NCBI RefSeq assembly: GCF_028693135.1
Contig: NZ_JAQUVZ010000018.1
Span: forward strand, 1 to 46,439
DNA: 46,439 nt
Origin: Methanosarcina sp.
Lineage (GTDB): Archaea > Halobacteriota > Methanosarcinia > Methanosarcinales > Methanosarcinaceae
Direction: 5' to 3'
The position numbers and the translations under genes are program-made. Of this stretch, positions 20,337 to 37,402 are shown in pieces (positions within the stretch are counted from its first letter, which is position 1; the number at the start of each line of letters is the position of its first letter). The notes below the pieces were generated by a model that had not been told where the DNA came from, did no database searches, and worked only from the letters and a program-made list of their open reading frames with translations.

Positions 20337-20499
20337 TTTTCTAACCTTTTTTTGGGCGTTCAGCTTGTAAACCTGAAGTCAGATAATAAAATAGGTTAGT
20401 AATATTTGTTGTGGAGCCATTTCAAAGTTTGATGCAACCTGCAACCACTGCCTTGTAATTCAATCATAACGATTCAGATGAGTAATTCTCAGACATGTC

Positions 20500-20776
20500 A
20501 GATAAGTCCGATGAATGTCAACTACCCGCCAATAAATTGGCAGGCATGTAATAGTGCTTCGGTTGACCAGCTTAAGTATTAATTTACTACGTTGGATTTG
20601 TCAAAACACCTACAGGTGCTTCCTCAGCTTGTAGCTCTGTTGTATAATATTAAAAGTTCTGTAGGGTAGGAACGGTGTATTATGCTTAACAAGCATTTCC
20701 AACATTAGCGAGAGGAGACACGAAAGTGCGTTACCGGAAGCAGGATTCATCTTACTTCTGAGATCGGAGAAATCCA
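20500..20776 (+). ncRNA. Probable omega-RNA of IscB with 5' guide
   Basis: In known IscB loci the guide RNA is encoded directly upstream of the nuclease with the guide at its 5' end. Here the scaffold appears to begin at 20517. An outer stem gtcaac (20517-20522)/gttgac (20562-20567) encloses the hairpin gccaa-taaa-ttggc (20528-20541). Later stems are cacc-taca-ggtg (20607-20618), atgctt-aac-aagcat (20682-20696) and cac-gaaa-gtg (20719-20728). The guide would be the roughly 16-18 bases before 20517 (gataagtccgatgaat), that is, flanking chromosomal DNA. Exact ends and the pseudoknot cannot be set by eye. Confidence 0.7.
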
Positions 20777-20779
20777 ATT

Positions 20780-22096
20780 ATGATCTTCGTATTAAACAAA
20801 AACAAACAACCGTTAAGCCCCTGTCATTCAGCAGTTGCCAGAAAATTGCTGAGAACAGGAAAAGCGGTTATCCATAAAAAATATCCATTTACAATACGGC
20901 TCAAAGAGTTGAAAAACTCTGAAAACAAAGCTGAATACAGATTAAAAATAGATTATGGAAGCCGACATACAGGTTTAGCTATCTTAAATGGTTCTAAAGT
21001 AATTGGGCTTGCTCAAATCCATCACAAAACCAGTATTAAAAGCAATATGGATAGCCGCAGAGAAATGCGGAGAACTCGACGAAATAGAACAACCAGGTAT
21101 AGAAAACCCAGATTCAACAACAGAAAACGAAAAGAAGGTTTGCTTCCCCCATCTCTGCTAAGCAGGGTAGACAACATCCAAAATTGGGTTAATAGACTGC
21201 AAAAACTGTGTCCGTTGACTCATATTTCATATGAAAATGTTAAGTTTGACACTCAGCTAATGCAAAATCCTGAAATTTCAGGGATTGAATATCAGCAAGG
21301 AGAACTTCAGGGGTATGAAGTCCGAGAGTATCTCCTTGAAAAATGGAATAGAAAATGTGCATATTGCGGAGCAGAAAATGTTCCGCTTGAAATAGAACAC
21401 ATCATACCAAAAGCAAGACATGGAACGAGCAGAGTTTCCAATTTAACATTAGCTTGCAGAATTTGCAATGAAGCAAAAGGGACTAAGACAGCAGAAGAAT
21501 TTGGGTATCCTGATATTCAAAAACAAGCAAGAATACCACTGAGGGATGCTACACTTGTTACAGCTACTCGATGGAAAGTCTACAATGTTCTTGAAAAAAC
21601 AGGACTTGAAGTTGAATGTGGAACAGGTGCGAGAACTAAGATGAATAGAATCAGGTTGAATCTACCCAAAGATCATCATTTTGATGCAATTTGTGTTGGT
21701 GCTTCAACACCAGATAAAATAATATTCAAAACAAACCAGGTTCTACACATAAAAGCAAAAGGTAGAGGATCACATTGCAGAACCAATCTTGATAAGTACG
21801 GATTTCCTAGAGGGTATCTGAGTAGACAAAAGAGTTTCTTTGGATTCCAGACAGGAGATATTGTTAAAGCGGTTGTTCCGAAAGGAAAATACAAAGGAAT
21901 TCTTTTTGGTGCTGTAGCTTGTAGAAAAACAGGTTATTTTGATATTAAAAATAAAGAAGGTATTAGGATAGGGCAGGGAATTAATCATAAAGATTGCAAT
22001 ATTTTGAGTAGAGCAGATGGATACGAATATGCCACAGAGAATTTGGAAGTTGACGGAATTCCTACTACCACTAAAGTCATAGGCATCCTTCCTTAA
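20780..22096 (+). CDS. iscB: IscB RNA-guided HNH/RuvC endonuclease
   Basis: 438 residues, the usual IscB size and order. An N-terminal PLMP/RRXRR-type segment (FVLNKNKQPLSPCHSAVARK) is followed by RuvC-I LKIDYGSRHTGLAIL (D58), an Arg-rich bridge helix at 92-118 (RREMRRTRRNRTTRYRKPR), RuvC-II ISYENVKFD (E152), the HNH domain with CAYCG (193-197), EIEHIIP (H207), N221 and CRICN (226-230), RuvC-III DHHFDAICVG (H300, D302), and a C-terminal SH3-like PLMP/TAM-interacting part. All catalytic and zinc residues are present, so it looks active. IscB is the ancestor group of Cas9 and cuts DNA guided by an omega-RNA. No TnpA transposase is adjacent, so mobility would need one in trans. The ggag site is 14 bases before the ATG. 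Confidence 0.93.
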   Translation: MIFVLNKNKQPLSPCHSAVARKLLRTGKAVIHKKYPFTIRLKELKNSENKAEYRLKIDYGSRHTGLAILNGSKVIGLAQIHHKTSIKSNMDSRREMRRTRRNRTTRYRKPRFNNRKRKEGLLPPSLLSRVDNIQNWVNRLQKLCPLTHISYENVKFDTQLMQNPEISGIEYQQGELQGYEVREYLLEKWNRKCAYCGAENVPLEIEHIIPKARHGTSRVSNLTLACRICNEAKGTKTAEEFGYPDIQKQARIPLRDATLVTATRWKVYNVLEKTGLEVECGTGARTKMNRIRLNLPKDHHFDAICVGASTPDKIIFKTNQVLHIKAKGRGSHCRTNLDKYGFPRGYLSRQKSFFGFQTGDIVKAVVPKGKYKGILFGAVACRKTGYFDIKNKEGIRIGQGINHKDCNILSRADGYEYATENLEVDGIPTTTKVIGILP

Positions 22097-22183
22097 TTTA
22101 TCGTGAAAATGAATACATTTGTCGCACCTGCGGAAAGGCAGTTTCAGGGTTACATGCATATCTTTTTATCACAAAAGCCTGAA
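22097..22183 (+). pseudogene. Small zinc-finger-like coding remnant after iscB
   Basis: Read in one frame the bases just after the iscB stop give YRENEYICRTCGKAVSGLHA followed by YLFITKA and a stop near 22184. The Cys-X2-Cys pattern looks like real protein sequence without a start. It may be the 3' end of a gene cut by the IscB element, or part of that element. Confidence 0.35.
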
Positions 22184-24736: not shown

Positions 24737-24790
24737 TGTGAACTACCCCACCTGCCTTCTGCTGAAGGCGAGGAAGGGGCTTCCTGGTTC
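24737..24790 (-). repeat. Hairpin end (right end) of the TnpB remnant
   Basis: On the minus strand, downstream of the TnpB remnant: ccaggaagccccttcctcg, cttcagcagaag loop, then gcaggtggggtagttcac. In IS605-type elements this end carries the 3' part of the TnpB guide RNA with the guide just outside, so the guide would follow gtagttcac on the minus strand. Confidence 0.6.
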
Positions 24791-24846
24791 ATCCCTTTCT
24801 TTTTTGTGAACAAGTACCCAGGCCTATCCCCTACGTTCCGCAGGTG

Positions 24847-25322
24847 TCAGATAACTATCAGATTTTGATCTTGAAGTGAGAATTTTTTGAGATTAATAGC
24901 GGCATTTATGTCCCTATCATATTTTGTTTTGCAGTCCGGACATTCCCATTCCCTAACATCAAGAGTCAGATTAGAATTGTGATAACCACAAACATTACAC
25001 AACTTAGAAGAAGGCTCAAATCTTCCGATTCTTAGAAGAGTTTTTCCTAACCATTCCACTTTATATTCCAGTTTGGTTACAAAGCTGCTCATGATGCATC
25101 TGAAATCGCTTGAGCTAAACAATGATTCTTTCGCATCCCTTTAACATTCAAAGTTTCCAACGCTATTGCCTGGTTCTTGCTAATCAGTCTAAAGTTAGCA
25201 GGCTTAACTTCTCTAACAATAATTTTCTGTAAGTCAAACCTTGATATTGATTTCCCAGTTTGTTCGACTGTTATAATTATTAAGTTATATACTACTGTGC
25301 GAAGCTGCGCTTTCACTTCCAA
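24847..25322 (-). pseudogene. tnpB: TnpB remnant (IS200/IS605-type), truncated and frameshifted
   Basis: Two overlapping minus-strand frames together give TnpB sequence. The upstream one (25322-25089) contains IALETLNVKGMRKNHCLAQAISDAS, here cited as ALETLNVKGMRKNHCLA, and then stops. A one-frame shift leads into SSFVTKLEYKVEWLGKTLL and the classical C-terminal zinc finger with SSKLCNVCGYHNSNLTL and WECPDCKTKYDRDINAAIN. The N-terminal half of the RuvC domain is missing, so the protein cannot be active. Flanked by element ends at 24737 and 25330-25385; the 25386-25784 spacer holds no further feature. Confidence 0.85.
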
Positions 25323-36263: not shown

Positions 36264-37402
36264 TAGGAGTTACGCAGTTGGGCCTCAACATATCGTTTTT
36301 AACAATCTCACTCCGACCTTAATTAATTTAATGTGTATAGAGGGTCATTTAAGTATGCTGTCACTGCCACTCTTCTAATTTTCATGGCACTTTCAAACCA
36401 TGAGATTCCACTTTTGACTCTCTGTAATTCCAATCTTAGAAAAGCTCTTAATGAGAACATTATATGTGCTCTTTGCGACTCTTCCTTTCTTGCCTGACAT
36501 TTTTCGACCCCACAGAATTGCTTAATCCCTCTATGATATTCTTCAATTTTCCATGACTTCTTTGCCAAATCTTCACGTTTTGATTCATCCATATCCTGCA
36601 CATCTGTAACCCAGTGTTGCGTGTCTCCATCTTTTGAAACTATCCGAAACACCTTTACAAATCCATATGCTTTGAGGTGAACCACAAGTCCTTTTGGAGG
36701 AATATCTACTGTTTCAAGTGGCACGTTTCCCTTGTTGTCAGGATTTACCAAACGATTAATCTTTAACCTTGTAAGAAAGTGCCATTCTTTCTTCCTTATG
36801 GCTTTAAGGTTTTTCACACTTGCATACCATGTATCAAACAAAACAAATTCTGGATTAAAACTACGTTCTTCGGCTTTGTCAAGCATATCGAGGAAATGGT
36901 CATTCTTTGTTTTGTCGTCTTCATCGATGTTATAAATTCTAAAATCGACAGGTATAACGGTTGTACCGTCTGTCCAAACTAAGGTAACCAGACCTATTCC
37001 TTTTACAGTACGATGATGTTTTCCACTCCACATACGACGAACAAAAGCCATTTCTTTTGCATATGGTTTATCTAATGTTGAATCGTCAACAATTAGAAAG
37101 CCTTCCTTAGGCTTGACATAATTTTTTACCTCCTCCCATAGCGCTTCTGTATCTGGAGTTTGTCTTTGAAGTAAGCGAGTAAAAGAGTCATGAGCAGGAG
37201 CATTATCTACGATTGGATAACATCTAGCGGCTTCAGTACAACTAAAAACGTTAGAAGCCGCAATGAGAAAATTAATGTATTCAAAGTCGTTACACTTGGG
37301 TGGATTTATGTCCATAACTCCGTACGTTTTTGGGGAATTACTATAATATAATTATATTTTAAATGAAATTAACTTTTCGGCATTTCAAGTGCGTAAGTCC
37401 TA
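36264..37402 (-). mobile_element. Complete insertion sequence with terminal inverted repeats
   Basis: About 1139 bp. Terminal inverted repeats are taggagttacgcagttg (36264-36280) and, reversed, taggacttacgcacttg (37386-37402), 17 bp with two mismatches. Both ends are flanked by ttaat (36259-36263 and 37403-37407), a likely 5-bp target duplication, although the site is AT-rich. It carries one transposase gene. Confidence 0.82.
36323..37315 (-). CDS. DDE transposase, IS4/IS701-like
   Basis: 330 residues with the RNase H-like catalytic triad D77 (LIVDDSTLDK), D161 (LFDTWYA) and E258/E259 (WKIEEYHRGIKQFCG, where Y-x2-R follows the IS4-superfamily signature). The order and spacing are normal and no stop or shift is present, so the transposase may be active. 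Which of IS4, IS701 or a relative cannot be settled by eye. The gene fills the element between the terminal repeats. The N-terminus carries a DNA-binding helical part (FLIAASNVFSCTEAARCYP). Confidence 0.88.
   Translation of the reverse strand: MDINPPKCNDFEYINFLIAASNVFSCTEAARCYPIVDNAPAHDSFTRLLQRQTPDTEALWEEVKNYVKPKEGFLIVDDSTLDKPYAKEMAFVRRMWSGKHHRTVKGIGLVTLVWTDGTTVIPVDFRIYNIDEDDKTKNDHFLDMLDKAEERSFNPEFVLFDTWYASVKNLKAIRKKEWHFLTRLKINRLVNPDNKGNVPLETVDIPPKGLVVHLKAYGFVKVFRIVSKDGDTQHWVTDVQDMDESKREDLAKKSWKIEEYHRGIKQFCGVEKCQARKEESQRAHIMFSLRAFLRLELQRVKSGISWFESAMKIRRVAVTAYLNDPLYTLN

What the first reader, a model, noticed from the sequence alone, without database searches (positions are those of the whole stretch)
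20500..22096. Intact IscB nuclease with an upstream omega-RNA region in a methanogen
The protein keeps RuvC-I Asp, bridge helix, RuvC-II Glu, a full HNH domain with two CxxC pairs and RuvC-III His/Asp. The upstream 260 bases fold into at least four perfect small stems and begin with a 6-bp stem (gtcaac/gttgac). The bases before 20517 would be the guide. With no TnpA nearby it may be a domesticated or trans-mobilised RNA-guided nuclease.
Basis: partly seen in the sequence, partly recalled or inferred. Interest (0 to 1): 0.8.

Follow-up and report, generated by a model that had tools for sequence, protein, structure and literature searches.

The report
Jumping gene with RNA-guided scissors
The window holds an intact mobile DNA element from a Methanosarcina archaeon that carries IscB, the small RNA-guided DNA cutter related to Cas9, and its guide RNA; it belongs to a known family, but the same genome also carries 33 stripped-down copies that keep only the guide RNA, and many of these have evidently jumped too.

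Summary
20780-22096 encodes an intact IscB (NCBIfam NF040563, 432.8 bits; catalytic D58, E152, H207, H299, D302). 20517-20721 is an IscB omega-RNA: Rfam HEARO RF02033, 139.7 bits against a cut-off of 83. The guide is the host flank ending at 20516. The element is 20517-22102, followed by GTGA, and the same 1,586-bp architecture recurs in other copies. Sites without an insertion in related genomes show clean insertion between guide and GTGA/ATGA without target duplication, the signature of IS200/IS605 elements moved by a Y1 transposase, here supplied from elsewhere.

"Domesticated" is not supported: the family is multicopy and mobile, and the window's site in a relative carries only a 58-bp element-end remnant. 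dN/dS is about 0.15.

The unexpected part lies outside the window. The genome has 45 HEARO RNAs, 33 of them in ORF-less 335-572-bp elements with intact ends and distinct flanks; at least 13 have insertion-free sites in related genomes. They look like non-autonomous elements that carry their own guide and could borrow IscB in trans; that use is inferred. ORF-less IS605 derivatives (PATEs) are known, so this is a strong example of a known kind. No transcription data were available.

The parts
20497..20516 (+). guide: host flank directly 5' of the omega-RNA scaffold (gtcagataagtccgatgaat)
   Evidence: The left boundary is GTCAA[C/T] in all but one of the 45 genome copies (C31 is aberrant) while the bases before it differ in every copy. 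Guide length of about 16-20 nt is inferred from the ~17-bp heteroduplex of OgeuIscB (PMC9640706).
20517..22102 (+). complete IscB/HEARO mobile element, 1586 bp, no transposase gene
   Evidence: Same 1586-bp length and ends in G000 copies C67 and C88 and in nine G008 copies; C67 and C88 have insertion-free sites in G010/G011.
20517..20721 (+). omega-RNA scaffold (Rfam HEARO RF02033)
   Evidence: 139.7 bits, gathering score 83. Structure holds in 88% of pair cells among 24 relatives against 31-40% when partners are slid by 1-3 columns; 16 pairs show double changes.
20780..22096 (+). iscB, 438 aa RNA-guided nuclease with RuvC and HNH domains
   Evidence: NF040563 432.8 bits; PDB sequence hits to TbaIscB, HfmIscB and OgeuIscB; dN/dS median 0.15 over 91 pairs.
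22047..22102 (+). right terminal segment (56 nt) shared with solo elements
   Evidence: Solo elements of G008 align to element positions 1-219/267 and 1531-1586 only.
22103..22106 (+). GTGA: target tetranucleotide and predicted target-adjacent motif (TAM)
   Evidence: GTGA follows 23 of 24 elements of this scaffold class (one GGGA); ATGA follows 19 of 19 of the other class.

Best explanation
An IS200/IS605-type mobile element that carries IscB and its omega-RNA and is mobilised in trans. Shown: exact ends, no target duplication, insertion directly 5' of GTGA, intact conserved nuclease under purifying selection, conserved RNA scaffold. Inferred: a Y1 transposase encoded elsewhere peels the element out as a single strand and pastes it next to GTGA. 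A transcript starting in the left flank carries about 16-20 flank bases as guide. IscB loaded with it cuts the copy from which the element has left (guide plus GTGA, reunited on excision), so that repair from an occupied chromosome copy restores the element. The occupied site is immune because the element separates guide match and GTGA. The 33 ORF-less HEARO elements in the genome are internal-deletion or related derivatives that move with the same kind of ends and could use IscB in trans for the same retention.
For: HEARO and IscB models. Element ends and unique flanks in the copies. Insertion-free sites for 18 elements (13 solo, 5 with iscB, two of them of the window's own family) in genomes of the same genus; six of 20 such sites still carry a perfect 14-nt seed plus GTGA/ATGA, i.e. 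would be cut by the predicted rule. dN/dS 0.15. Structure kept across copies. 33 solo, 10 iscB-bearing and 2 contig-truncated HEARO in G000; 52 of 53 scored HEARO in G008 have no iscB within 400 nt. The left end of the HEARO (GTCAACTACCCC) is the reverse complement, bar one base, of the right end of local tnpB elements (GGGGTAGTTCAC), consistent with a shared transposase specificity. Seed, TAM side and 5' guide as in OgeuIscB (PMC9640706).
Against: No expression or cleavage data. No transposase in cis and no proof which tnpA acts; one of three in the genome is interrupted. No positioned archaeal TATA signal in the left flanks, so how the 5' guide is transcribed is open. Within solo families the RNA part is not clearly more conserved than the rest, so solo RNA function is not shown by selection. 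The window's own orthologous site in G008 is not a clean one.
Confidence: 0.8

Rival explanations
1. Domesticated IscB: immobile, kept by the host for a cellular role (defence or regulation) with a fixed guide.
For: Intact ORF and strong purifying selection; no tnpA in the element.
Against: Ends are intact and identical to those of sister copies that moved; multicopy family with different guides; the orthologous locus in G008 has only a 58-bp end remnant. Purifying selection is equally expected for a selfish nuclease.
Confidence: 0.06
2. Passenger without guided cutting: the element moves or moved as a simple IS605-type element; IscB and the RNAs do not act as a guided nuclease here, and the solo elements keep the HEARO only because it holds the end hairpin that the transposase needs.
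For: RNA part of solos not clearly more conserved than the rest of the element; terminal-only IS605 derivatives (PATEs) are common in archaea (PMC3119063).
Against: dN/dS 0.15 and invariant catalytic residues in iscB; 205 nt of structured scaffold retained where a short end hairpin would do; covariation across families.
Confidence: 0.12

Closest known systems
IscB-omega-RNA (HEARO) OMEGA systems, e.g. OgeuIscB, TbaIscB
   Same: RuvC/HNH nuclease with bridge helix; HEARO-type RNA directly upstream; 5' guide from the flank; motif on the 3' side of the target.
   Different: Archaeal; predicted motif GTGA rather than the NNRR of OgeuIscB (GTGA would satisfy NNRR); 438 aa; many additional RNAs without iscB in the same genome.
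IS200/IS605 (IS605/IS1341) tnpB elements
   Same: Near-terminal hairpin ends, insertion next to a fixed tetranucleotide, no target duplication, transposase often absent; nearly the same end sequence as local tnpB elements.
   Different: Nuclease is IscB; the guide lies 5' of the RNA, not 3'.
PATEs (palindrome-associated transposable elements) of Haloquadratum and Halanaerobium
   Same: ORF-less, no target duplication, derived from IS605-type elements by core deletion, thought to be moved in trans (PMC3119063, PMC7290912).
   Different: The solo elements here keep a complete omega-RNA and so a site-specific guide; the passages read in those papers do not mention this.

Membership tests
IscB (RNA-guided endonuclease, NF040563) | Full-length match above the curated cut-off | tested here: met
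   432.8 bits against 175, profile 1-314 of 314
IscB (RNA-guided endonuclease, NF040563) | Complete RuvC and HNH catalytic residues, RRXRR bridge helix | tested here: met
   D58, E152, H207, H299, D302 invariant; PF14239 232 bits
IscB (RNA-guided endonuclease, NF040563) | Fold of solved IscB, with C-terminal WED/TI domains | tested here: inconclusive
   Model confidence low (mean pLDDT 57.9); the best ten Foldseek hits are IscB/IsrB but TM-scores by query length are only 0.31-0.39
IscB (RNA-guided endonuclease, NF040563) | RNA-guided DNA cleavage | not testable with these tools
   Needs biochemistry
HEARO / omega-RNA (RF02033) | Score above gathering threshold, directly upstream of iscB | tested here: met
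   139.7 against 83 bits, 58 nt before the start codon
HEARO / omega-RNA (RF02033) | Covarying base pairs across relatives | tested here: met
   16 pairs with double changes, 88% of cells paired
HEARO / omega-RNA (RF02033) | Transcribed with flank-derived 5' guide | not testable with these tools
   No RNA data held
IS200/IS605-type element | Insertion at a fixed tetranucleotide without target duplication | tested here: met
   Insertion-free sites; GTGA/ATGA
IS200/IS605-type element | Y1 HUH transposase tnpA in cis | tested here: not met
   None in the element; three over the cut-off elsewhere in the genome, one of them interrupted. Many IS1341-type and iscB elements lack it, so the claim is limited to 'trans-mobilised, IS605-like'

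The most novel reading that the evidence does not exclude
In this lineage omega-RNA-only mini-elements have outnumbered the nuclease genes and act as RNA-guided non-autonomous transposons: each carries the address of its own site and borrows IscB in trans to force its re-copying into the many chromosome copies of a polyploid archaeon, a homing drive of MITE-like elements. One class inserts preferentially at ATGA start codons, bringing its own ribosome-binding-like sequence.
Probability: 0.4. Interest if true: 0.7.

Novelty: new member of a known kind. Interest (0 to 1): 0.5.

Why it matters
It gives a natural set of dozens of independent insertions, insertion-free sites and guides for IscB in one archaeal genus, so the idea that these nucleases exist to keep their elements in place can be tested by comparing occupied and unoccupied sites. 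It also predicts two IscB classes with different target motifs (GTGA and ATGA). The excess of RNA-only elements makes trans use of IscB testable in a genus for which genetic tools exist (M. mazei, PMC3177094).

Tried and rejected
Plain RNA folding: not significant (z -1.06), so not used as evidence. A positioned TATA box in the left flanks that would transcribe the guide: none seen. Extra conservation of the RNA part within solo families: not clearly found. A cis tnpA: none inside the element. TnpA count against HEARO count: no relation (G010 has 72 TnpA and 9 HEARO, G000 3 and 45). AlphaFold model: low confidence with a shallow alignment, used only as a weak hint. Key papers (Altae-Tran 2021, Weinberg 2009) are not in the held library, nor was Meers 2023 found there; statements about them rest on memory. 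From memory only: standalone omega-RNAs have been noted in Ktedonobacter, and ORF-less IS605-type elements in Geobacillus.

Full report
What is there. The ORF at 20780-22096(+) is an intact IscB of 438 aa: NCBIfam guided_IscB 432.8 bits over the whole profile, Pfam RRXRR and HNH, sequence hits to solved IscB proteins. The catalytic set D58, E152, H207, H299, D302 and both CxxC pairs are present and invariant in an alignment with relatives at 51-79% identity. Rfam finds one RNA family in the whole 46-kb window: HEARO, the IscB omega-RNA, at 20517-20721(+), complete, 139.7 bits against a threshold of 83. A plain fold of the region is not unusual (z -1.06); the case rests on the covariance model and on covariation. 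Among 24 related copies the Rfam structure is formed in 88% of pair cells, against 31-40% when partners are slid, with 16 pairs changed on both sides.

Ends and guide. The genome (4.22 Mb, 89 contigs) has 45 HEARO above threshold and 13 IscB matches. Oriented on the RNA, all but one copy start with GTCAA[C/T] (C31 is aberrant), and what precedes is different at every site. The right ends stop just before GTGA or ATGA. For the window this gives an element of 1,586 bp, 20517-22102, followed by GTGA at 22103-22106. The same length and ends recur in two more copies of this genome and nine copies of the related genome G008. The guide is therefore the last 16-20 bases before 20517; OgeuIscB uses a ~17-bp heteroduplex and a motif on the 3' side of the target (PMC9640706).

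Mobility. I joined 60 bp of left flank to 60 bp of right flank for 43 elements and searched six genomes of the genus. Twenty stretches from G008, G010 and G011, covering 18 elements (13 solo, 5 with iscB), were aligned base by base. The join is exact at the predicted junction, without target duplication; small indels in a few cases lie in diverged flank. Two of the 18 elements (C67, C88) belong to the window's family. At the window's own site G008 has a 58-bp remnant that starts GTTGACGCATTCC and ends CTCCTGCTT just before ATGA. It looks like a terminal-only leftover of an element of the other class, as described for IS605-type elements in Haloquadratum (PMC3119063); how it relates to the present copy is not resolved. 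In six of the 20 unoccupied sites the 14-nt seed and the motif are both still perfect, so a loaded IscB would be predicted to cut them.

Selection and transposase. Among 14 full-length family members the median dN/dS is 0.15 (91 pairs), so the protein is under use, whether by the element or the host. The element has no tnpA. Three Y1 transposases over the cut-off lie elsewhere in the genome, one interrupted. Local tnpB elements, including the remnant at about 24737-25280 in this window, end in GGGGTAGTTCAC, which is the reverse complement of the HEARO start bar one base; this fits a shared transposase but does not prove it. A domesticated role is unlikely, because the family is multicopy, has mobile ends, and this copy is not conserved in place.

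RNA-only elements. Of the 45 HEARO, 33 sit in elements of 335-572 bp without an ORF of more than 72 codons, 10 carry iscB or its remains, and 2 are cut by contig ends. Type B solos align to positions 1-219/267 and 1531-1586 of the iscB element, i.e. they look like internal deletions. In G008, 52 of the 53 scored HEARO lack iscB within 400 nt; only 53 of 157 candidates were scored there, so this is not a ratio for the whole genome. Some other genomes of the class have one iscB per HEARO (G038 8 of 8, G119 4 of 4), while G156, of another genus, has 4 of 18. Scaffold class and motif go together: GTGA after 23 of 24 elements of the window's class, ATGA after 19 of 19 of the other. These elements have moved and keep a full scaffold plus a site-specific flank, so use of IscB in trans is the natural reading. 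It is inference: within solo families the RNA part is not clearly more conserved than the rest, and no RNA data are held.

A side result. Seven of 19 ATGA insertions in this genome lie exactly at the start codon of an ORF of at least 162 codons, where 7.3% would be expected from the share of start codons among non-coding ATGA in the window (p 2.5e-4; expectation, based on a hand-made gene list). In G008 it is 4 of 19. Six of the seven elements end CTGAGG-N4 before ATG, which resembles a ribosome-binding site.

What is known. IscB/HEARO systems and their sparse association with TnpA are published (PMC9755519). ORF-less IS605-type derivatives are published as PATEs (PMC3119063, PMC7290912). A TnpB-based drive has been reported on plasmids (PMC11870625). 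Methanosarcina can have many chromosome copies (M. acetivorans up to 17, cited in PMC3177094), which would favour such a drive; that link is mine. I therefore file the window element as a new member of a known kind and the RNA-only expansion as the part worth following.

Noticed in passing
genome G000, 33 loci such as C23:90543-90748 (L017) and C58:253064-253292 (L045): HEARO omega-RNAs in ORF-less 335-572-bp elements, more numerous than iscB genes; similar in G008 and, in another genus, G156.
   Followed up: yes
L037, L042, L043, L045, L052, L056, L057 (right ends of ATGA-class elements): Insertions exactly in front of the ATG of long ORFs (e.g. thymidylate-kinase-like, LeuD-like), the element end offering a GAGG sequence at Shine-Dalgarno distance in six of seven.
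   Followed up: partly
window 24737-25280 (-): Remnant of a tnpB element (TNB domain, 91-aa ORF) whose right end GGGGTAGTTCAC is nearly the reverse complement of the HEARO start.
   Followed up: partly
L126 about 950-1010 (G008:C1:2806950-2807010): 58-bp end remnant of a different element class at the site orthologous to the window insertion; two classes may have used the same site.
   Followed up: partly
L133 908-1297 (G000:C47): tnpA of a tnpA+tnpB element interrupted by a TAA just before the segment expected to hold the catalytic tyrosine.
   Followed up: no
window 36323-37315 (-): IS701-family transposase (NF049921, 392 bits), apparently intact.
   Followed up: no
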